Part shown: piece after piece, positions 27,616 to 40,001 of the stretch | How positions within the stretch are numbered: position 1 is the first letter of the stretch | Layout of the letters: each line of letters opens with the position of its first letter | From: Clostridiales bacterium | GTDB taxonomy: Bacteria; Bacillota; Clostridia; Saccharofermentanales; Saccharofermentanaceae | Length of the DNA stretch: 64,000 nt | Assembly (NCBI GenBank): GCA_017480325.1 | Contig: JAFVAY010000011.1 | Span: 62,001 to 126,000 of the forward strand | Direction: 5' to 3' | The notes under the pieces: model-generated | The model's database searches: none | Seen by the model: only the letters and a program-made list of their open reading frames with translations | Told to the model about the DNA's origin: nothing | Position numbers and translations under genes: made by a program

Positions 27616-29538
27616 ATGGCTATTGATAAACAGCATGTAAAGGATCTATGGAATAAAGGGAATGAAACAGAGGCACAGCAACTTATTGACGATATTAAAG
27701 ATGTAGCGAAAGTGTTTTTCACAAGTAGTGAATGGAGTGGTATTTTTACCAATTCCTCAAAAATAAATAAAGGTGTAAAAGATAAACTTGTAAAGTTTAT
27801 TCGCAATGATTCAAAGGTTATATTTGGAAGTGGAGAGTACGCCGTACGTAAAAATGATTCAATTGAAGATGATGCTTTGAGAAAGAGCCTATCTGACAAT
27901 ATAGATGAAGTAAAAAGTGACTATTTTTATAACAAAATTTTGTTTTTAAGGACAGTTGATATTGATAATACATGTAAGTTGGAAAAACATTTCATATGTA
28001 TTTCCAAGGAGGATGTCTTAAATTCGCTTTATAAAAAGTTTTGTGATGAGAATATTTTAGATGCAGAGCTAAAAAATAAGACTTGGGCGAATAAATCCAG
28101 TGCAATATGTGAGAAATGTTATGACATACTAAATGAAGGGAAAACAAAAGGTGAAGAAGGGTTTGTAGATAAATCTTTTGAGAACGATATCAAAATATAC
28201 AAGTACATAATTGAGCCTTTGACGTATGGTGCTAATCCGGTTCTTGCAAATGATTTTGATTTGTTTCCAAATATCATTCTTTATGGTGCTCCGGGAACAG
28301 GAAAGACATTTCACGTTGAGAATGCATTGCAGATGTTAGCAAAAGATCCAAATCGTTATAAGAAGGTTCAATTTCATCCCGGATTCGGATATGAAGAGTT
28401 TATTGAGGGGTTAAAACCCGTTGGAATAAATGATGCTACCGGAGCACTGGAGTTTGAAGTAGTTAATGGAGTATTCAAAGATCTGTGCATAGAAGCGAAT
28501 AAGCATCCTGAAGAAGATTATTTTTTTGTTGCGGATGAGATCAATCGTGCCAATCTATCGGCTGTTTTTGGAGAGACATTGTCGTTATTAGAAAAAGACT
28601 ACAGAGTTCAAGATATAACAGATGTGAAAAACATGAGACAGACTCCACTATCCCAGCTTATAAAAGCCGAGATCGAGAAGGCTGATGACAAGAAGTCGCA
28701 AGAAATAAAGGAAAAACAGTTTTACTGTGATGATAATAAAGAAGTGTATTTTGGTATTCCGAAAAATGTATATTTCATTGGAATGATGAATGACGTTGAT
28801 AAAAGTATTGACTCATTTGATCTTGCATTGAGACGTCGATTCAAGTGGGTCCGTATGGATTGTGATTATGATGTGGTCAGAAACAAGCTTCGTTCTGATG
28901 GCGTAGGAAATAGTTATGTTGAAAGATACATCAATTCTTGCAAGAGACTTAACGGTTTTATATCCGGTGATACTGAATTATATAAGAGTAATAATAAGCA
29001 AGCATCGCTTGGATTTGGAAAGGCATATGAGTTTGGACATGCGTACTATTTAAAGATTGGAAAGAAAGGAGACGCAATCTATAGAAAGCAATACAGTAAC
29101 TTTTTTGATAACCATATAGCGCCCGTCTTAAGCGAATATATCAGATCATTTGTCGAGGAGAAAAGGGTAGATCAGAAGATAAAAGATGCAAAGTGTGTAT
29201 TTACCCAGTATGCTCCCGAGGTGATAGATAACAGTTCTTTTGAAGCCCAAATGAAGAAGCAATGGGAAAATGTAGGAATTGCAAGCGATTGTACTGCATT
29301 GACAACCAAATGCCAAAAAATTAACAATACAATTAATAGTAAGCATGGACCAGCATACAGACTTTCACCCAAGGCCTTTGTTGACCTATTCACTAAAGAT
29401 GAGAATGACAAAAAAGGTTTAATTGATAAGGGCTCCTTACCGGGGTCTAAAGTTGAAAAGGAATTCATAAATAACGAAGACAATCAGAAGAATAAATTAA
29501 AGGTCTTATTTGAGATACCACTTAATATCTGGGAGTAA
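27616..29538 (+). CDS. mcrB: McrB-type GTPase of a type IV restriction system
   Basis: 640 residues. After a 210-residue N-terminal region, which should recognise modified DNA but matches no domain I know, comes the McrB motor: Walker A LYGAPGTGKTFHVENA at about 222-237, Walker B DYFFVADEINRANL at about 303-316, and the family signature MMNDVDKSIDSFDLALRRRF, corresponding to the GTP-specific MNxxD motif. McrB hexamers use GTP to translocate and drive McrC cleavage. Codon use is AT-rich, unlike the genes on both sides, so recent acquisition is likely. mcrC follows 16 bp later. Confidence 0.85.
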   Translation: MAIDKQHVKDLWNKGNETEAQQLIDDIKDVAKVFFTSSEWSGIFTNSSKINKGVKDKLVKFIRNDSKVIFGSGEYAVRKNDSIEDDALRKSLSDNIDEVKSDYFYNKILFLRTVDIDNTCKLEKHFICISKEDVLNSLYKKFCDENILDAELKNKTWANKSSAICEKCYDILNEGKTKGEEGFVDKSFENDIKIYKYIIEPLTYGANPVLANDFDLFPNIILYGAPGTGKTFHVENALQMLAKDPNRYKKVQFHPGFGYEEFIEGLKPVGINDATGALEFEVVNGVFKDLCIEANKHPEEDYFFVADEINRANLSAVFGETLSLLEKDYRVQDITDVKNMRQTPLSQLIKAEIEKADDKKSQEIKEKQFYCDDNKEVYFGIPKNVYFIGMMNDVDKSIDSFDLALRRRFKWVRMDCDYDVVRNKLRSDGVGNSYVERYINSCKRLNGFISGDTELYKSNNKQASLGFGKAYEFGHAYYLKIGKKGDAIYRKQYSNFFDNHIAPVLSEYIRSFVEEKRVDQKIKDAKCVFTQYAPEVIDNSSFEAQMKKQWENVGIASDCTALTTKCQKINNTINSKHGPAYRLSPKAFVDLFTKDENDKKGLIDKGSLPGSKVEKEFINNEDNQKNKLKVLFEIPLNIWE

Positions 29539-29554
29539 GGAACGTATAGTTAAT

Positions 29555-31036
29555 ATGGCGGATTATTATATTCCTGCTAACAACACGGATTATGATTTTG
29601 CACGAAGTCTTGAGAGTCATGATGATTATCAAAGTTTTTACAAGAAGCTAAAAGATAATGGAAGTCTGTGGCTTACAAAAGAACAATACGATAATGTCCT
29701 TGGATTCAAGAAGAGAAGAGACTATTCGGAATGTAGAGATGAGGACAAATGTGTATATCAGTTACAGTATTGCTCTAACGGATCGGGTAATCAGTTCCTG
29801 AAGACTTATAACTATATAGGTTTTATTCCTATTGGTAAAAAAGACAGAATAATCATTGATACCGGCAAACATAGGGCAGGGGAAAAGGACTTATTTCTTC
29901 TTAGGTTATTAAAATATGTTTCCGGGGATGTTTACTTTGATAGTTCCGAAGACGACAGTATTATCGATACACCAAATGATGCCAGTTATTCGCTACTTAT
30001 AATGGGTTATCTTTTTTTATTTCAATTCCGTAAAGCTTTTGCCAAAGGGATTCCTCTTCAGTATGTTAAGCATCAGGAGCATGGACTGAATATCAAAGGT
30101 CAGATAAATATCAAAGAATATATTCAGAGAGATATGCTGTATGGATATAAACTGACATATTCCTATAGTCAGCTTGAATATATTCAAGATATCATTGATG
30201 TTTTATACATTACCATGCGAGAGATGGATGATTCTGCTGTTTTTACAGAACTATTGAATAGTGGAGATTATGCAAGATTTTATAGGCAGTTAAGACAGCT
30301 TTACTCAGGTAAAAGACCATCAGCATCTGTTATCAATCGAATTGAACAGCAAAAGGCGCTTAAAAATCCTATGTATTCTGATTATAAGGAAACACTTCGT
30401 CTGGCTCGCTTTATTCTTGAACATAGAAACGTAATCCATGACGATGACTCGGACAGACCAGGTAATCCGGGATTCCTTGTGGATGTATCTGAATTGTGGG
30501 AACTATATGTAGCAGAGCTTATTCGCAGGAGTGATTACTTCCGAGAGAATAATTATAGAATTTTGGAACAACAGGAAGCAGAATATACCTTGTATAATGA
30601 CACGTTTATAAAGAAGAAAAATATACCGGATATAGTTCTTGAGAACGAAGATAATGTTCTAGTTATTGATGCAAAATTTAAAACTATGAAGTTCAGACCT
30701 TTCGATGTAGATCGAGATGACCTTCATCAGATCCATTCATATTCCGGATTTTTTAATCTGAAGTCAAAAAAAGAAGGGAAGACTTTAAAGGTTAGTTCAC
30801 TGGTATATCCTTATTATAACGATGAGAGTGATTCGGATATTAATGAAATAATTGAGTCTCGATTATATAGTAATGATGCGTTTGAAGATACTGAGGTTAA
30901 GACAGTTTTCTCAATTGGATATGTAAGAATATCAGATCAATCGGATCCGGCTAAATTCGACGAAGAAATGACACAATATGAGCAAGAATATATAGAACGA
31001 TTGCAAAAGTCGATAAGTATGCTAGATAACTTATAA
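29555..31036 (+). CDS. mcrC: McrC-type nuclease subunit
   Basis: 493 residues from the ATG at 29555, which has AAGGA upstream; a longer frame from 29510 overlaps mcrB and is less likely. The middle region holds the McrB-binding part; the PD-(D/E)XK core is IPDIVLENEDNVLVIDAKFK at about 357-376. McrC cuts DNA when McrB translocates from modified sites. AT-rich codon use matches mcrB. It ends 21 bp before the DUF2779 gene, which has host-like codons, so the two transcripts may be joined although their origins differ. Confidence 0.85.
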   Translation: MADYYIPANNTDYDFARSLESHDDYQSFYKKLKDNGSLWLTKEQYDNVLGFKKRRDYSECRDEDKCVYQLQYCSNGSGNQFLKTYNYIGFIPIGKKDRIIIDTGKHRAGEKDLFLLRLLKYVSGDVYFDSSEDDSIIDTPNDASYSLLIMGYLFLFQFRKAFAKGIPLQYVKHQEHGLNIKGQINIKEYIQRDMLYGYKLTYSYSQLEYIQDIIDVLYITMREMDDSAVFTELLNSGDYARFYRQLRQLYSGKRPSASVINRIEQQKALKNPMYSDYKETLRLARFILEHRNVIHDDDSDRPGNPGFLVDVSELWELYVAELIRRSDYFRENNYRILEQQEAEYTLYNDTFIKKKNIPDIVLENEDNVLVIDAKFKTMKFRPFDVDRDDLHQIHSYSGFFNLKSKKEGKTLKVSSLVYPYYNDESDSDINEIIESRLYSNDAFEDTEVKTVFSIGYVRISDQSDPAKFDEEMTQYEQEYIERLQKSISMLDNL

Positions 31037-31057
31037 CAAAGGAGAATTAAACTCACA

Positions 31058-32542
31058 ATGCTTCACCTATCCAAGTCTAAGTATTGCAGCGGTCTGCAGT
31101 GTCCGAAGATGCTGTGGCTCGGTAAGAATATGCCGGAGGCCTTCGATGAGAGCATATTGAATAAGGGTGTCCTTGATGCCGGGAGCGATATCGGAGATCT
31201 GGCGATGGGGCTTCTCGGGGAGTATACGGAGGTACCTTATAGCGAGGACCTGACGAAGATGCTGGAGGAGACCCAAAGGCTTATTGATGAGGGCGTGGAG
31301 AATATCTGCGAGGCGTCACTGGCGTATAACGGGCTTTTCTGTAGCGTGGATATACTTAAGAATCTCGGTGACAAGAAGGTAGAGATCTACGAGGTCAAGA
31401 GCTCGACTCACGTTCACGATCCATACCCGGATGATGTGGCTTACCAGCACTATGTTCTGAAGAATCTGGGATTCGATGTTAAGGGTGTGTACATCGTGCA
31501 TATCAACAATAAGTATGTGAGGCATGGGGAGCTGGAGCTTGATAAGCTTTTCGAGATAGAGGACATGACGGAGGAAGCCAGGGCCCGCTACGATAAGGTG
31601 GAGGAGACCATAAAGAAACTCGAGGCAATAATGGCGGATTCGGAGGAGCCTAATCAGGAGATCGGAGAGCACTGCTTCAAACCGTACGAGTGCGGTTACT
31701 GGAAGCACTGTACCGCGAAGCTTCCCACCCCGAATGTCTTCGATCTCGGCGGGATTAAGCTGTCCACGAAGCTTAAGTACTACAACGATGGCATGGTATC
31801 TTACAAGGAGCTTCTTCAGGACGAGAAGCTCAATAATAAGGTGCAGCAGCAGATAAAGCACGAGATCAACGACCTTCCGGATGAGATCGATAAGGCGGCT
31901 GTGGAGGAGTTTCTTGATTCCTTATGGTACCCGCTGTATTTTCTGGACTTCGAGAGCTTTACCTGCGGCGTGCCGAAATACGACAACAGCTCGCCCTACC
32001 AGCAAATATGCTTCCAGTACTCGCTTCACTATATCGAGGAAAAGGGCGGGGCGCTTAAGCATAAGGAGTTCCTGGCGTATCCCGGAAAGGATCCGAGGCG
32101 CGAGCTGTGTGAGAGGCTGTGCGAGGACATCCCGCTTAATGCCTGCACGATGGTGTATAACAAGTCTTTCGAGCCCTCGAGGATAAAAGAGATGATGCCC
32201 CTCGTCCCCGAGCTTCAGGAGCATCTTACCAATATCTGCGACAACATGGTGGATCTGATGGTGCCCTTCTCCGGCCGCAAATACTATAACCGCGCCATGC
32301 AGGGCTCGTACTCTATCAAATACGTTCTGCCGGCACTGTTCCCGGGTGACCCTGCTCTCGATTACCACAACCTCGAGGGCGTGCACAACGGCGGTGAGGC
32401 GTCAGCGACCTTCCTTCGCATGGAGACTATGAGTCCCGAGGAGCTCGAGGAGTACAGGGGATATCTTCTCAAGTACTGCGGCCTCGATACCTATGCCATG
32501 GTCAAGGTATGGGAGAAGCTCAAGGAAGTCGCCGGGCGGTGA
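31058..32542 (+). CDS. DUF2779 protein: Cas4-like nuclease fused to DnaQ-like exonuclease
   Basis: 494 residues; AAAGGAG before the ATG. N-terminal Cys10 and Cys15 (KYCSGLQCPKML) plus a CxxxxxxCxxxxxxC cluster near 206-219 (CFKPYECGYWKHC) frame a RecB/Cas4-like nuclease core whose KVEIYEVKSSTHVHD supplies the Glu-x-Lys motif; four cysteines suggest an Fe-S cluster. From about residue 290, YFLDFESFTCGVP starts a DEDD-type exonuclease-like DUF2779 domain. Proteins of this family are recurrent near defence genes, but the function is not established. GC content is much higher than mcrBC. Confidence 0.75.
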   Translation: MLHLSKSKYCSGLQCPKMLWLGKNMPEAFDESILNKGVLDAGSDIGDLAMGLLGEYTEVPYSEDLTKMLEETQRLIDEGVENICEASLAYNGLFCSVDILKNLGDKKVEIYEVKSSTHVHDPYPDDVAYQHYVLKNLGFDVKGVYIVHINNKYVRHGELELDKLFEIEDMTEEARARYDKVEETIKKLEAIMADSEEPNQEIGEHCFKPYECGYWKHCTAKLPTPNVFDLGGIKLSTKLKYYNDGMVSYKELLQDEKLNNKVQQQIKHEINDLPDEIDKAAVEEFLDSLWYPLYFLDFESFTCGVPKYDNSSPYQQICFQYSLHYIEEKGGALKHKEFLAYPGKDPRRELCERLCEDIPLNACTMVYNKSFEPSRIKEMMPLVPELQEHLTNICDNMVDLMVPFSGRKYYNRAMQGSYSIKYVLPALFPGDPALDYHNLEGVHNGGEASATFLRMETMSPEELEEYRGYLLKYCGLDTYAMVKVWEKLKEVAGR

Positions 32543-32920: not shown

Positions 32921-33028
32921 AATCAGATTAAGTTCTTTACCGTCCATAACTTAAGAATACAAAATATAAAAACTGCCGTTCACGACGGGTTATTCCTACT
33001 TAAAAACTATATTTTTCTTTCAACACCC

Positions 33029-33057
33029 TTGACATTCTCAAGGGGAGGATGTTTAAT
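33029..33057 (+). promoter_or_regulatory. promoter of the aromatic amino acid operon
   Basis: TTGACA (33029-33034), 17-bp spacer, TTTAAT (33052-33057): a near-consensus promoter. Transcription should begin at 33064-33065, exactly at the ATG of the leader peptide, so the message would be leaderless. Confidence 0.7.
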
Positions 33058-33064
33058 TAACGGC

Positions 33065-33127
33065 ATGAGAAAGAACTTTTACGCATTTGCATACAACTAT
33101 TATTACTACTTTACGAACGTGAAGTAA
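33065..33127 (+). CDS. Tyr/Phe-rich leader peptide of the aro operon
   Basis: A 20-residue frame MRKNFYAFAYNYYYYFTNVK: six Tyr and three Phe, including four Tyr in a row. It lies between the promoter and an intrinsic terminator in front of aroF, the classical arrangement for transcription attenuation: lack of charged tRNA-Tyr or tRNA-Phe stalls the ribosome and should prevent terminator formation. The start ATG coincides with the predicted transcript start; the GGGGAGG at 33042-33048 would lie outside the transcript and therefore be part of the spacer rather than a ribosome site. Confidence 0.75.
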   Translation: MRKNFYAFAYNYYYYFTNVK

Positions 33128-33179
33128 GAGTGGTTTGTGCAAGCAGGAAGTTGATGGATCATTAGATTAAGCTGATCAG

Positions 33180-33212
33180 GCGCCGCACGAATCACTCGGG
33201 CGGCGCTTTTTT
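33180..33212 (+). terminator. attenuator terminator before aroF
   Basis: GCGCCGC (33180-33186) and GCGGCGC (33200-33206) form a 7-bp GC stem with an inner CGA/TCG pair, followed by TTTTTT at 33207-33212. Between the leader peptide and this stem, GATCA/TGATC around 33156-33178 can form another hairpin; the competing antiterminator is not obvious by eye. Confidence 0.75.
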
Positions 33213-33278
33213 ACGGCCCGCCGGAGAAGATCATGAGGACATGACGGCACCAAGACGAGATCAAAGGAGAAAACGAAC

Positions 33279-34277
33279 ATGATTGCAGTACTTAAGGAAA
33301 GCGCAACAGAACAACAGATCCAGAACCTTATCAATTGGTTCGAGAGCCAGGGAGTTAAGGTCAACCGCTCGAAGGGTGATTACGTCACTATCTTAGGTCT
33401 TATCGGAGACACCACTAAGATCGACATTGAGCTTCTCGGCGGTCTTGACATCATCGATAACGTAATGAGAATTTCCGAGCCCTTCAAGAAGGCAAACAGG
33501 AAGTTCCATCCGGAGGATACAATCGTAGATATCGGAGGAGTCAAGATCGGCGGCGGCAACTTCGCTGTAATGGCAGGTCCCTGTTCGGTTGAGAACGAAG
33601 AGCAGATCATCGAGACAGCTAAGGCTGTTAAGGCCGCAGGCGCGACGCTCTTACGAGGCGGAGCTTATAAGCCGAGAACTTCACCCTACGATTTTCAGGG
33701 ACTTCACGAAGAGGGTATAAGACTTCTTCTTAAGGCTAAGGAGGTCACGGGTCTTCCCATCGTATCCGAGATCATGAGCCCCGAGCAGATCCCCGTATTC
33801 GAGGAAGTAGACTGTCTCCAGGTTGGCGCTCGTAACATGCAGAACTTCGACCTTCTTAAGGCTCTCGGTAAGACAGGCAAGCCGGTGCTTCTGAAGCGTG
33901 GACTTTCCGCCACTATCAAGGAGTGGCTAATGAGTGCAGAGTACATCATGTCCGAGGGCAATCCCAACGTTATCCTCTGCGAGAGAGGAATCAGAACATA
34001 CGAGACCTACACAAGAAATACCTTCGATGTAAGTGCTATCTCTGCCTTAAAGGAGCTGACACATCTTCCTGTTGTGGGCGACCCTTCTCACGCTACCGGT
34101 AAGGTTTCTCTCATCAAGCCCATGTCCATGGCGGCAGTCGTATCAGGTGCCGATGCTCTGGAGATCGAGGTTCATACCTGCCCCAGCAAGGCGCTCTCCG
34201 ATGCGGCACAGCAGCTTACTCCCGATCAGTTCGTCGGCGTAATGGAAGCCATCGAGAAGGCAAGAAGCATTCTCTGA
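33279..34277 (+). CDS. aroF: 3-deoxy-7-phosphoheptulonate (DAHP) synthase
   Basis: 332 residues; AAAGGAG before the ATG. An N-terminal ferredoxin-like regulatory segment of about 75 residues precedes the barrel: NFAVMAGPCSVENEEQI, LLRGGAYKPRTSPYDFQG, LQVGARNMQNFDLL, KPVLLKRGLSATIKEWL, and LPVVGDPSHATG. This is the AroH-like type with an extra domain that binds Tyr or Phe for feedback in relatives. It condenses PEP and erythrose 4-phosphate, the first committed step of the pathway. As first gene behind a Tyr/Phe attenuator, it is controlled both at transcription and probably at the enzyme. Confidence 0.95.
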   Translation: MIAVLKESATEQQIQNLINWFESQGVKVNRSKGDYVTILGLIGDTTKIDIELLGGLDIIDNVMRISEPFKKANRKFHPEDTIVDIGGVKIGGGNFAVMAGPCSVENEEQIIETAKAVKAAGATLLRGGAYKPRTSPYDFQGLHEEGIRLLLKAKEVTGLPIVSEIMSPEQIPVFEEVDCLQVGARNMQNFDLLKALGKTGKPVLLKRGLSATIKEWLMSAEYIMSEGNPNVILCERGIRTYETYTRNTFDVSAISALKELTHLPVVGDPSHATGKVSLIKPMSMAAVVSGADALEIEVHTCPSKALSDAAQQLTPDQFVGVMEAIEKARSIL

Positions 34278-36239: not shown

Positions 36240-37373
36240 ATGAAGCTCTTTCTTAAAGATAAGACGTTTGACTTTCATGTGGATGCACCGCCGTCAAAGT
36301 CGGTCTATCACAGGGAGCTTATTATCAGATTTCTTCTGGGGTACGAGGACGACCTGATGCCTTCGCCAGAAGACAGCAAGGACATTATCGCTACCAAGAA
36401 TTGTCTTCTGGCATTACGCGAAAAGAAAACGATATTAGACTGCAACGAGTCGGGATCAACCTTAAGGTTTATGATTCCCGTGGCGGCAGCCTATGCCAAG
36501 GTTAATAACATTTCCGGCAAATTAGTATTTACAACAAAAGGCAGGCTTTACGACAGACCGATAGATGCGCTGGAGAAGTGCCTTGCTACACATAATGTGA
36601 AGATAGTAAGAAATGATAACGAGAGGACCTTCGAGCTTCAGGGGAATCTAACCGAAGGCGAGTTCGTGATCGACGGCAGCGCCTCTTCGCAGTACGTCTC
36701 GGGACTCATGATGGCTCTTACCATCCTCCCGCAGAGCACCCTTACGGTTACCGGCAAGCCCACGTCTGTTCATTACATTAAACTCACAGAAAATATTCTG
36801 AATAAGTATAAACTTGACGATAAGCAAAATCTCCAGGGCTTCAATATCGAGGGAGACTGGTCCGGCGGGGCGTTCCTTCTTTGCTTAAGCGAGCTTATTC
36901 ACGGTCATGTCGAGGTGGGAAATCTCAACAAGGACTCTGTTCAGGGAGACAAGGAGATACTTAAATTTCTTGATAAGCTCGGGGCGGAAGAGCTGTCATG
37001 GGACTGCGAGAATATTCCCGATATCGTCCCCTATATGGCGGTAACGGCAGCTTTCAGAAATAAGAAAACTGTCTTCAACAATATCGGCAGACTTCGTATA
37101 AAGGAGTCTGACCGCGTCGCTGCGATCCGCGAGCAGCTTCAGGTGGCGGGCATCAGAACAGAGGAGACGGAGGACACTCTGACTGTCTGCGGTTATGAGA
37201 ATAACTATAATAGTGATACGATTGAACTTAAGTCGTATAACGATCACCGCATGGTGATGTCGGCGATACTTATTGCTGCGGCTTTGGAATGTGACCTGAT
37301 AATAGACTCGATCGACCCGGTAGATAAATCCTTCCCGGGGCTTAGAGACGTGATAAGGGAGGAATTCTCTTAA
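36240..37373 (+). CDS. aroA: EPSP synthase (3-phosphoshikimate 1-carboxyvinyltransferase)
   Basis: 377 residues, about 50 fewer than the E. coli enzyme. Substrate-binding motifs are visible: PPSKSVYHRELIIR (Lys, Ser), NESGSTLRFMIPVA, GRLYDRPIDALEKC, DGSASSQYVSGLMMAL, the catalytic Asp/Lys region GRLRIKESDRVAAI and YNDHRMVMSAIL. The usual SGTT loop reads ESGST here. It transfers the enolpyruvyl group to shikimate 3-phosphate. Loop shortening is mostly in the N-terminal domain; function should be retained. Confidence 0.9.
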   Translation: MKLFLKDKTFDFHVDAPPSKSVYHRELIIRFLLGYEDDLMPSPEDSKDIIATKNCLLALREKKTILDCNESGSTLRFMIPVAAAYAKVNNISGKLVFTTKGRLYDRPIDALEKCLATHNVKIVRNDNERTFELQGNLTEGEFVIDGSASSQYVSGLMMALTILPQSTLTVTGKPTSVHYIKLTENILNKYKLDDKQNLQGFNIEGDWSGGAFLLCLSELIHGHVEVGNLNKDSVQGDKEILKFLDKLGAEELSWDCENIPDIVPYMAVTAAFRNKKTVFNNIGRLRIKESDRVAAIREQLQVAGIRTEETEDTLTVCGYENNYNSDTIELKSYNDHRMVMSAILIAAALECDLIIDSIDPVDKSFPGLRDVIREEFS

Positions 37374-38479
37374 TGAGTATGGACAGCACCTATAAGGGTA
37401 AGGTTCTCGAACTTAAGATCTACGGGCAATCCCACAGCCCCACGATAGGTGTGTTTATAAAAGGTCTTTCGGACGGCGTCAGGCCGGATGAGGACTTCAC
37501 GAGAAGCCTTATGGCAAGGCGCGCTCCAGGCAATAACAAGTGGTCCACTCCGCGTAAGGAGAAGGATGAGGTTATTTTCGAACAGGGGGAAGAGAATACT
37601 ATTCACGGTTACATAGTAAATACCAACACAAAGCCCAAGGACTACGCTTCCATCATGAACAAGCCGAGGCCCGGGCATGCGGACTACACCGGCAAGATAA
37701 AGTTCAAGGATGAGGCGGCTCAAAGCGGCGGCGGTATCTTCTCCGGAAGAATGACGGCGCCCCTGTGTATCGCAGGTTCCATCGCCCTGAACGAGCTTAA
37801 TAAAAGAGGTATAGAAATATACGCTCACCTTAAAAGATGCGGAGGCATAGATGACGATTCTTGCCTCATGCATGAGGTAAACGATGAGGACTTCAGGCGT
37901 AGGCTCTCTGAGGTTAAGACCAAGGAGTTCCCCGTAGTCTCGGACGAAGCGGGAGAGCAGATGAAGGCGAAGATAGAAGAGGCGAGACTCTCGCTGGATT
38001 CTGTCGGCGCTGTCGTGGAGTGCGTGATTTACGGACTACCGGCAGGACTCGGAGGACCTATCTTCGACGGGCTTGAGGGGAAGATCGCAAGCCTTATTTA
38101 CGCTATCCCCGCGGTAAAGGGAGTTGAATTCGGCGCCGGCTTTGATGTCGCAGATATGAGAGGCTCGCGGAACAACGACGAGTTCAGGTACGAAGGCGAT
38201 AAGGTCACGCTCGCGACCAACAACTGCGGCGGTATCCTGGGCGGTATAAGTGTAGGTGAAGCGGCACCCCTGGTATTCGACTGCGCCTTTAAGCCCACTC
38301 CCTCTATCGCCAGAGAGCAGAATACTATAGATATAATGAATAAAGAGAATACCACCATCTCGATCGAGGGAAGACACGACCCCTGTGTCGCGCCCCGTGC
38401 AGTTCCGGTAGTGGAGGCTGCAGCGGCCATCGCGATCTACGACGAGATATTGGCGGAGGAAATTAATGAAGACGCTTGA
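37373..38479 (+). CDS. aroC: chorismate synthase
   Basis: 368 residues. GQSHSPTIGVFIKGLSDG carries the first FMN/EPSP-binding histidine, RRAPGNNKWSTPRKEKD the arginines, RPGHADYTGKIKF and GGIFSGRMTAPLCIAG the rest; GGILGGISVGEAAPL and RHDPCVAPRAVPV close the active site. It makes chorismate using reduced FMN. The start overlaps the aroA stop (TAATG) and the end overlaps the fusion gene by 14 bp. Confidence 0.95.
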   Translation: MSMDSTYKGKVLELKIYGQSHSPTIGVFIKGLSDGVRPDEDFTRSLMARRAPGNNKWSTPRKEKDEVIFEQGEENTIHGYIVNTNTKPKDYASIMNKPRPGHADYTGKIKFKDEAAQSGGGIFSGRMTAPLCIAGSIALNELNKRGIEIYAHLKRCGGIDDDSCLMHEVNDEDFRRRLSEVKTKEFPVVSDEAGEQMKAKIEEARLSLDSVGAVVECVIYGLPAGLGGPIFDGLEGKIASLIYAIPAVKGVEFGAGFDVADMRGSRNNDEFRYEGDKVTLATNNCGGILGGISVGEAAPLVFDCAFKPTPSIAREQNTIDIMNKENTTISIEGRHDPCVAPRAVPVVEAAAAIAIYDEILAEEINEDA

Positions 38480-40001
38480 TGAGTTACGACAGGAAATTGA
38501 TGCGGCAGATAAGGATTTGCTCGACGCATTCGAGCGCAGGCTTCAGGCGGCAAAGAGCATAGGAGAACTTAAGAGGGTGGAAGGTAAGCCGGTGTTTGAC
38601 CCCGAGAGGGAGCAGCTGAAGCTGGACCGTATCGCGGCTTTGGCGGGATTCGAGTCGAAGCCTTATGCCGGAAGGCTTTATAAAGAGATTATGAATATAG
38701 CAAAAGACCTCGAGAGCAGACCTATCTTCGGCGTTCTCGGGAAATCTCTGCCTCACACGTATTCTCCGCAGATTCATAGCCTTATAACAACTGACTATGC
38801 TTATACCATAATCGAGAGGGAAGAGGACGAGCTTGATGAGCTATGGGCTCAGGGAAGACGCGGGGTCTATGGCGGATTTAACGTAACTATTCCATATAAG
38901 AAGACGGCGCTTCAAAGATGTGATGAACTTACGGAATGTGCGAAGAATATCGGTGCAGTAAATACTGTCGTGTTCAGAGAGGACGGGACGAGTCTTGGAG
39001 CCAACACAGATGTCTATGGCTTCAAGTACATGCTTAAGTCGTCAGGCATCGACCCTGCAGGGAAGACGGCTTTGATATTGGGAACCGGCGGTGCGTCTGT
39101 TGCTGTCGAAGAGGCTTTAAAGAAAATGGGAGCTTCTGATATCAGGTTCGTAAGCAGAACCGGAGACATCAACTACGAGAACGTCTATGAGACCTGCGAA
39201 GAAGCGAACCTTATCGTAAACACAACACCGGTCGGCATGTACCCGGAGATAATGAACTCGCCTCTTGATATCGCGAAGTTTCAAAATCTCGAAGCCGTGG
39301 CGGACATCATTTACAACCCTTCCTGTACGAGACTTCTTTACAATGCGAGGAAGGCCGGTCTTAAGACTGCAGGCGGATTGAAGATGCTTGTGGCGCAGGC
39401 GTTCAAGGCGTCGGCTTTCTTCAGGGGTGCTAGGGATGATAACGATGCGGAAGCGTCCGTAAACGAAGAGGACGTCGAGCGTGTTACCAAGCTTCTTGAG
39501 AATAAGATGAAGAACATAACGATAATAGGTATGCCCGGATCGGGTAAGACCTGGTTCGCCAGATGGCTCGGCACAAACCTCGGAATGAAAGTAGTTGACT
39601 TAGACTTGGTTTATGCCGAAGAATACGGCGAGACCTGCGCCGAGACTTTACGTAGAGACGGTGAGGATGTCTTCCGTGAGAGGGAGTCCAAGATAGCAAG
39701 AGAGTATCTTGGCAGAAGCGGGCTTATCATATCCTGCGGAGGCGGCATTATCGTAAGGAAAGAGAATCATTTCCCAATTAAGTGCAATTCTCTGGTTATC
39801 TATAACGAGCGTCCTCTTGAAGTCCTCTCACTTAACAACAGACCCTTAAGCGCAGGACATGGAGTCGAGAAGCTCTACGAGCAGAGGAAGGATAAATACG
39901 AGTCTCTTGCTGATATCGTGATACATGTGGATAAGAAGGATTCCCGCGAGGAATACCTTAACGAAGCACTGGAGAAATACTATGAAGCTACTTGTTCTTA
40001 A
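38466..40001 (+). CDS. trifunctional chorismate mutase-shikimate dehydrogenase-shikimate kinase
   Basis: 511 residues in three parts. Residues 1-88: AroQ-type chorismate mutase (LDELRQEIDAADKDLLDAFE, RLYKEIMNIAK). Residues about 89-340: shikimate dehydrogenase (IFGVLGKSLPHTYSPQIHS, GGFNVTIPYKKTAL, NTDVYGFKYML, ILGTGGASVAVEEAL, IIYNPSCTRLLYNARKAG). From about 348: shikimate kinase with P-loop IIGMPGSGKTWFARWL, substrate Asp in KVVDLDLVYAE and LIISCGGGIIVRKENH, and the lid RPLSAGHGVEKLYEQRKDKYE. All active-site motifs look intact. It supplies two steps before EPSP synthase and the step after chorismate. Two-part fusions exist; this three-part order is unusual to my knowledge. Confidence 0.9.
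   Translation: MKTLDELRQEIDAADKDLLDAFERRLQAAKSIGELKRVEGKPVFDPEREQLKLDRIAALAGFESKPYAGRLYKEIMNIAKDLESRPIFGVLGKSLPHTYSPQIHSLITTDYAYTIIEREEDELDELWAQGRRGVYGGFNVTIPYKKTALQRCDELTECAKNIGAVNTVVFREDGTSLGANTDVYGFKYMLKSSGIDPAGKTALILGTGGASVAVEEALKKMGASDIRFVSRTGDINYENVYETCEEANLIVNTTPVGMYPEIMNSPLDIAKFQNLEAVADIIYNPSCTRLLYNARKAGLKTAGGLKMLVAQAFKASAFFRGARDDNDAEASVNEEDVERVTKLLENKMKNITIIGMPGSGKTWFARWLGTNLGMKVVDLDLVYAEEYGETCAETLRRDGEDVFRERESKIAREYLGRSGLIISCGGGIIVRKENHFPIKCNSLVIYNERPLEVLSLNNRPLSAGHGVEKLYEQRKDKYESLADIVIHVDKKDSREEYLNEALEKYYEATCS

What the first reader, a model, noticed from the sequence alone, without database searches (positions are those of the whole stretch)
33029..33212. Leaderless Tyr/Phe leader peptide and attenuator controlling the whole chorismate operon
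A near-consensus promoter predicts a transcript starting at the ATG of a 20-residue peptide with six Tyr and three Phe, followed by a terminator before aroF. Amino-acid attenuation of this kind is classical in Proteobacteria, while Bacillota usually use T-boxes or RNA-binding proteins. A leader peptide translated from a leaderless message would be an unusual variant.
Basis: partly seen in the sequence, partly recalled or inferred. Interest (0 to 1): 0.7.

Follow-up and report, generated by a model that had tools for sequence, protein, structure and literature searches.

The report
Leaderless tyrosine-sensing attenuator of aromatic operon
A rumen bacterium appears to switch its aromatic amino acid operon on only when its ribosomes stall on tyrosine codons of a tiny 20-residue peptide whose start codon lies at the very beginning of the message; the switch type is textbook, but this Tyr/Phe version turns out to be widespread in Clostridia and its leaderless form evolved there several times.

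Summary
Confirmed and extended. At 33029-33212 lie TTGACA-17-TTTAAT, an ATG 7 nt after the -10, a 20-codon ORF (6 Tyr, 3 Phe) and an intrinsic terminator before aroF-tyrA-aroB-aroA-aroC-(CM/aroE/aroK)-aroQ. AroF was found in 57 of 58 congeners; the leader is intact before it in all but two. The 1:2, antiterminator (2:3) and terminator (3:4) helices each show compensatory changes. The last Tyr codon always lies 17-24 nt before segment 2, although the stop codon moves by 22 nt. This is a classical ribosome-mediated attenuator; no T-box or Rfam family matches. A covariance model hits 31 of 391 Clostridia genomes; 28 of 30 checked hits precede aromatic genes. Leaderlessness is well supported: 7-nt spacing in all 7 species of the window's clade without a conserved SD, against about 30 nt plus SD in other congeners. 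On AroF trees it changed at least three times. The genus's pheA also has a Phe leader peptide, leaderless in every case found. Phe/Tyr uORFs on shikimate genes and leaderless leaders (Sinorhizobium trpL, Corynebacterium ilvB) were known; I found no report of the Clostridia class or of leaderless leaders in Bacillota. No 5' ends or read-through were measured.

The parts
33029..33034 (+). -35 hexamer TTGACA
   Evidence: same element in all congeners with readable upstream DNA, as TTGACA or TTGCAA/TTGCAT/TTGACT
33052..33057 (+). -10 hexamer TTTAAT, 17 nt from the -35; ends 7 nt before the ATG
33063..33065 (+). inferred transcription start (G/C/A; A of the ATG most likely), giving a 5' UTR of 0-2 nt
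   Evidence: inference from the -10 position; not measured
33065..33127 (+). leader peptide ORF MRKNFYAFAYNYYYYFTNVK*
   Evidence: conserved Tyr/Phe-rich ORF in the genus
33098..33109 (+). four consecutive Tyr codons (12-15), predicted stall site
33087..33093 (+). segment 1 (TTGCATA), 5' arm of the 1:2 protector hairpin
   Evidence: 89% of cells paired, 14 two-sided changes
33128..33140 (+). segment 2 (GAGTGGTTTGTGC): pairs with segment 1 or segment 3
33185..33197 (+). segment 3 (GCACGAATCACTC): antiterminator partner of segment 2, overlaps the terminator 5' arm
   Evidence: 99% of cells paired, 9 two-sided changes
33178..33212 (+). intrinsic terminator (3:4) with U-tract 33207-33212
   Evidence: 5 pairs with changes on both sides
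33279..34277 (+). aroF, DAHP synthase; its SD AAAGGAG is at 33263-33269
   Evidence: PF00793, NF006421
34316..35158 (+). tyrA-like prephenate dehydrogenase
   Evidence: PF02153/PF20463
35155..36237 (+). aroB, 3-dehydroquinate synthase
36240..37373 (+). aroA, EPSP synthase
37373..38479 (+). aroC, chorismate synthase
38466..40001 (+). fusion: chorismate mutase, shikimate dehydrogenase, shikimate kinase
   Evidence: PF01817, PF08501, PF01202
39970..40410 (+). aroQ, type II dehydroquinase

Best explanation
A ribosome-mediated transcription attenuator, trpL/pheL-like in mechanism, reads charged tRNA-Tyr (and probably tRNA-Phe) and controls the aroF-tyrA-aroBAC-aroEK-aroQ operon. The transcript starts at or within 2 nt of the AUG, so a ribosome must load on a leaderless 5' end (inferred). 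With Tyr plentiful, the ribosome reaches the stop codon and covers segment 2; the terminator 3:4 forms and transcription stops. When Tyr is scarce, the ribosome stalls on codons 12-15 over segment 1; segment 2 is free, pairs with segment 3 before segment 4 is made, and RNA polymerase reads through. With no ribosome, 1:2 forms and transcription terminates. The anatomy, conservation and covariation are shown; the 5' end, the stalling and the read-through are inferred.
For: Leader ORF rich in Tyr/Phe in 56 loci of the genus, 3-9 Tyr each. Antiterminator 99% paired with U-A to C-G exchange, 9 cells; terminator with 5 two-sided pairs; 1:2 hairpin with 14 two-sided cells; covariation scores beat 500/500 shuffles and every slid control. 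Distance from last Tyr codon to segment 2 is 17-24 nt in all 56 while the stop codon lies from 7 nt before to 15 nt inside segment 2. Folding with a stalled ribosome and RNAP just past segment 3 gives the 13-bp antiterminator (-25.2 against -7.2 kcal/mol with the ribosome at the stop). CM search: 28 of 30 checked hits precede aroF, tyrA or CM-prephenate dehydratase. No T-box or other regulatory Rfam family at gathering score. Leaderless: -10-to-ATG of 7 nt in 7/7 clade species, 28-38 nt, nearly always with an SD-like motif, in 47 others; at least 2 changes within the genus and at least 3 over Clostridia. In the same genus the pheA leader is leaderless in all 13 cases and 3 more. The genome sample has an excess of -10 hexamers 6-7 nt before ATGs, 27 against 12 expected, P about 1e-4.
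Against: No expression data. With the full-length transcript the terminator still wins thermodynamically even under a stalled ribosome, so the switch must be kinetic, as in classical attenuators. In the window itself an SD-like AAGGGGAGG lies at 33040-33048, 16 nt before the ATG, though it is absent from clade mates. Phe codons are fewer and lie partly outside the predicted stall site, so a Phe response is less certain than a Tyr one.
Confidence: 0.86

Rival explanations
1. The attenuator is real, but its message is not leaderless in this species: transcription starts further upstream and the SD-like AAGGGGAGG (33040-33048) serves the ATG 16 nt away or a non-standard start (for example ATT at 33056, 7 nt away).
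For: A strong SD-like run exists in the window; most congeners use an SD.
Against: The run sits between -35 and -10 and is missing from all six clade mates, which keep the -10 and the 7-nt spacing. The pheA leaders in the genus are leaderless too.
Confidence: 0.1
2. The nascent peptide itself, rather than tRNA charging, stalls the ribosome (arrest-peptide sensing, TnaC- or Erm-like).
For: Peptides keep some non-Tyr residues within clades, for example the MKTAVF..YAYSYYYYF core.
Against: Across Clostridia only Tyr/Phe richness persists, not a residue pattern, and what stays fixed is codon position relative to segment 2. A peptide arrested by high Tyr would switch a biosynthetic operon on when it is not needed.
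Confidence: 0.04
3. The peptide is incidental, and the terminator is controlled by an RNA-binding protein, a riboswitch or a T-box.
For: T-boxes and RNA-binding proteins are common regulators in Bacillota (literature).
Against: No regulatory Rfam family matches. Covarying segment 1 lies inside the ORF and Tyr spacing is fixed.
Confidence: 0.02
4. Chance ORF and an ordinary terminator of the upstream gene.
For: None beyond the small size of the ORF.
Against: Conservation over the genus and at AroF in other Clostridia: 39 of 74 loci against 1.8% of shuffles.
Confidence: 0.01

Closest known systems
E. coli trpL / pheL type amino-acid attenuators
   Same: Leader peptide with regulatory codons, 1:2, 2:3 and 3:4 helices, terminator before the biosynthetic operon.
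   Different: Sensor is Tyr plus Phe, target is the whole chorismate/Tyr operon, host is Clostridia, and the leader has no SD or 5' UTR.
Sinorhizobium meliloti trpL (PMC7298713)
   Same: Attenuator RNA whose 5' end is the ATG of the leader peptide.
   Different: Trp sensor, Alphaproteobacteria; no sequence relation was tested.
Corynebacterium ilvBNC leader (PMC11857589; a paper cited in PMC10272879 reports no ribosome binding site)
   Same: Leaderless leader peptide and attenuator.
   Different: Branched-chain amino acids, Actinobacteria.
uORFC-13-1 motif before aroF in Acholeplasma (PMC8632094) and two F/Y uORFs on shikimate genes (PMC6429828, Fig. 6b legend)
   Same: Proposed Phe/Tyr uORF attenuators on shikimate genes.
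   Different: uORFC-13-1 has an RBS and at least one Phe codon and is confined to Acholeplasma and environmental sequences. The Fig. 6b motifs' sequences were not readable here, so overlap with the Clostridia class cannot be excluded.
His and Leu leader peptides in Bacillota (PMC2965389, PMC9413887, PMC5794164)
   Same: Leader-peptide attenuation outside Proteobacteria.
   Different: Different amino acids and genes; leaderlessness not stated in the passages read.

Membership tests
Ribosome-mediated amino-acid attenuator | Short leader ORF with clustered codons for the end product | tested here: met
   6 Tyr and 3 Phe of 20; 3-9 Tyr in 56 loci
Ribosome-mediated amino-acid attenuator | Intrinsic terminator between leader ORF and first gene | tested here: met
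Ribosome-mediated amino-acid attenuator | Mutually exclusive antiterminator and protector hairpin | tested here: met
   covariation in both, overlapping segment 2
Ribosome-mediated amino-acid attenuator | Regulatory codons and stop placed so that a stalled ribosome frees, and a terminating ribosome covers, segment 2 | tested here: met
Ribosome-mediated amino-acid attenuator | Downstream genes make the sensed amino acid | tested here: met
Ribosome-mediated amino-acid attenuator | Read-through rises on starvation for that amino acid | not testable with these tools
   needs a reporter or RNA-seq
Leaderless mRNA | -10 element 6-8 nt before the start codon, no SD in between | tested here: met
   7 nt in 7/7 clade species, no conserved SD
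Leaderless mRNA | Mapped 5' end at the start codon | not testable with these tools
   no transcriptome data
T-box | Stem I/specifier, T-box sequence and antiterminator bulge | tested here: not met
   no Rfam T-box match at gathering score; at E<=1 the leader region gave one unrelated sub-threshold hit
uORFC-13-1 / Stav 2019 shikimate uORFs | Match to the published consensus | not tested
   consensus only in figures, not held

The most novel reading that the evidence does not exclude
Leaderlessness is part of the sensor. Because both aromatic attenuators of this clade (aroF and pheA) start at their AUG, ribosome loading needs 70S-type initiation on the nascent 5' end, so attenuation would report initiation state or 70S availability together with Tyr/Phe charging. 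That would explain why the arrangement arose repeatedly.
Probability: 0.15. Interest if true: 0.8.

Novelty: new variant of a known kind. Interest (0 to 1): 0.6.

Why it matters
It shows a classical Tyr/Phe attenuator class spread over Clostridia, a group in which T-boxes or RNA-binding proteins are the expected answer, and a natural series in which the same attenuator switches between SD-led and leaderless starts. That makes it possible to test, in matched natural pairs, what a 5' UTR contributes to ribosome-RNA polymerase timing in attenuation, and how Bacillota translate leaderless messages.

Tried and rejected
T-box or other regulatory Rfam element: none in the window, in 19 related loci or in 131 kb of the genome and loci (only tRNAs); the one weak hit in the leader, RF02865 (21 bits against a cut-off of 58), is most likely chance. 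Leaders on trpE and hisG in the genus: none recognisable with the thresholds used. pheA leaders elsewhere in Clostridia: among the 70 pheA loci scanned, one clear case outside the genus (L290, SD-led); the other clear ones are in the genus. AroF homologues of other families of the same order: no Tyr/Phe leader. One search used a mistyped family (ATP synthase delta) and was ignored. CM hits L353 and L360 look like chance terminators. The PMC6429828 supplement, which may hold a related motif, was not readable. The report was first sent with a formatting error.

Full report
OBSERVATION. The sequence holds TTGACA (33029-33034), a 17-nt spacer, TTTAAT (33052-33057), seven bases (TAACGGC) and the ATG at 33065. 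The ORF 33065-33127 reads MRKNFYAFAYNYYYYFTNVK*, 6 Tyr and 3 Phe. A GC-rich hairpin with a U-tract ends at 33212, and aroF begins at 33279 with its own SD. The leader RNA is far more stable than shuffles (z -5.1). The operon is aroF, tyrA, aroB, aroA, aroC, a chorismate mutase/shikimate dehydrogenase/shikimate kinase fusion, and aroQ.

RELATIVES. A search with AroF found it in 57 of 58 same-genus genomes. Their upstream DNA was taken from the loci of that search or fetched. A Tyr/Phe-rich leader ORF stands 159-237 nt before aroF in 56 loci including the window. The two exceptions are L015, where the upstream contig is cut short, and L038, where the leader is broken by a deletion.

STRUCTURE. 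On 28 diverse leaders (alignment A1) three helices were counted. Antiterminator 2:3 (GUGGUUUGUGC with GCACGAAUCAC): 99.0% of cells paired and a U-A/C-G/A-U exchange with 9 two-sided cells. Terminator 3:4: 94.9% paired, 5 pairs with two-sided change. Protector 1:2 (UUGCAUA with UGUGCAA): 89.3% paired, 14 two-sided cells. In each, no shuffle of 500 reached the covariation score, and every slid control scored about half or less. Related sequences inflate shuffle tests, so the exchanges themselves and the slid controls carry the weight. The second clade (A2) is too similar internally to test 2:3, but its terminator is conserved.

GEOMETRY. Across 56 leaders the start of segment 2 lies 17-24 nt after the start of the last Tyr codon (47 of 56 at 21 or 22), although peptide length runs from 19 to 27 codons and the stop codon moves from 7 nt before segment 2 to 15 nt inside it. 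A ribosome stalled on the Tyr run would end just short of segment 2, while a ribosome at the stop would sit on it. In the window, masking nt 1-51 (stalled) with RNA polymerase just past segment 3 yields the 13-bp antiterminator at -25.2 kcal/mol; masking nt 1-75 (at the stop) leaves only -7.2. On the full transcript the terminator wins in either case, so order of synthesis must decide, as in known attenuators.

LEADERLESSNESS. The distance from the -10 to the leader ATG is exactly 7 nt in all seven species of the window's clade, 9 nt in L052, and 28-38 nt in 47 others, nearly all of which carry an AGGAG-like SD; one more (L033) is cut off before its promoter. The clade's spacers between -35 and -10 differ, and the SD-like AAGGGGAGG of the window is not shared. 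An AroF tree needs two changes within the genus, both forced by well supported branches. Among 80 AroF loci from named genomes, 56 leaders are SD-led by a simple rule, and eight outside the genus are clearly leaderless (L088, L094, L099, L112, L121, L131, L136, L140), for example TTGACA-17-TATAAT-6-ATG in L099. On the wider tree the label needs 5 changes, at least 3 forced (quick method). The direction of change, SD to leaderless, is a parsimony inference within the genus.

SAME GENUS, SECOND CASE. pheA (prephenate dehydratase) has its own Phe-rich leader (own genome: MNSNVFTSFDFFWGFGFFTRSE, L182) in 13 of 16 same-genus loci. In all 13 a TATAAT ends 6-7 nt before a leader ATG, counting the first of two adjacent ATGs in L178, without an SD; in most of them a TTCACTGC-like segment complementary to GCAGTGA of the terminator follows. 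Three more congeners agree on the start. In a 464-kb sample of the genome, -10-like hexamers pile up 6-7 nt before in-frame ATGs (18 and 9, against a mean of 6.0 per position further upstream; P about 1e-4), so leaderless genes are not rare here. Zheng et al. found leaderless genes in Firmicutes concentrated in Lactobacillales and Mycoplasma (PMC3160421).

SPREAD. Before more distant AroF relatives (57-70% identity), 39 of 74 loci have a strong Tyr/Phe ORF against 1.8% of dinucleotide shuffles and 4 on the reverse strand. 109 of 120 leaders examined are followed by a terminator, and segment complementarity to its 5' arm is stronger than for shuffles (median z -2.5 in the genus, -1.9 outside). 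A covariance model built from A1 hits 31 of 391 Clostridia genomes, once each, in 15 genera. Of 30 hits checked, 26 precede aroF, one tyrA-aroB and one a CM-prephenate dehydratase gene; two look like chance. This search did not use AroF, so it is an independent test.

COMPARISON. Leader-peptide attenuation in Bacillota is documented or proposed for His (PMC2965389, PMC9413887) and Leu (PMC5794164). A Phe uORF before aroF is proposed in Acholeplasma (PMC8632094), and two uORFs with Phe and Tyr on shikimate genes appear in PMC6429828 (Fig. 6b legend), whose consensus I could not read. Leaderless leader peptides are known for trpL of Sinorhizobium (PMC7298713) and ilvBNC of Corynebacterium (PMC11857589). 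I found no description of the Clostridia Tyr/Phe class, nor of leaderless leaders in Bacillota, in the library searched, which lacks most subscription journals.

VERDICT. The mechanism is a known kind; the aromatic Clostridia class and its repeated leaderless form make it a new variant. What is shown is anatomy, conservation, covariation and phylogeny. What is inferred is the transcription start, the stalling and the amino-acid response.

Noticed in passing
L182 (G000:C13, reverse strand), leader at locus position 988: Own-genome pheA carries a leaderless Phe-rich leader peptide MNSNVFTSFDFFWGFGFFTRSE with a terminator and complementary segment; same in the genus.
   Followed up: partly
window and L241-L260: Excess of -10-like hexamers 6-7 nt before in-frame ATGs suggests a few percent of genes in this genome are leaderless.
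   Followed up: partly
window 33026-33044: Inverted repeat CCCTTGA-CATTC-TCAAGGG overlaps the -35 element in this species only; could be a chance hairpin or an operator.
   Followed up: no
L038 (G020), upstream of aroF: Leader ORF broken by a deletion that leaves ATGCTATTACTACTACTTTAG; natural attenuator mutant or assembly error.
   Followed up: no
L339 (G418) and L346 (G398): The same kind of leader stands directly before tyrA-aroB without aroF (L339) and before a CM-prephenate dehydratase gene (L346), so the element occurs on other aromatic operons too.
   Followed up: partly
L077: A MAG labelled Treponema carries this AroF and a Tyr-rich leader, nesting within the Clostridia; probably misbinned or transferred.
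   Followed up: no
window 27616-32542: Possible defence cluster upstream of the operon: an ATPase-like protein matching a PADLOC restriction-enzyme model, an unmatched 508-aa partner, and a Cas4-like/DUF2779 protein.
   Followed up: no
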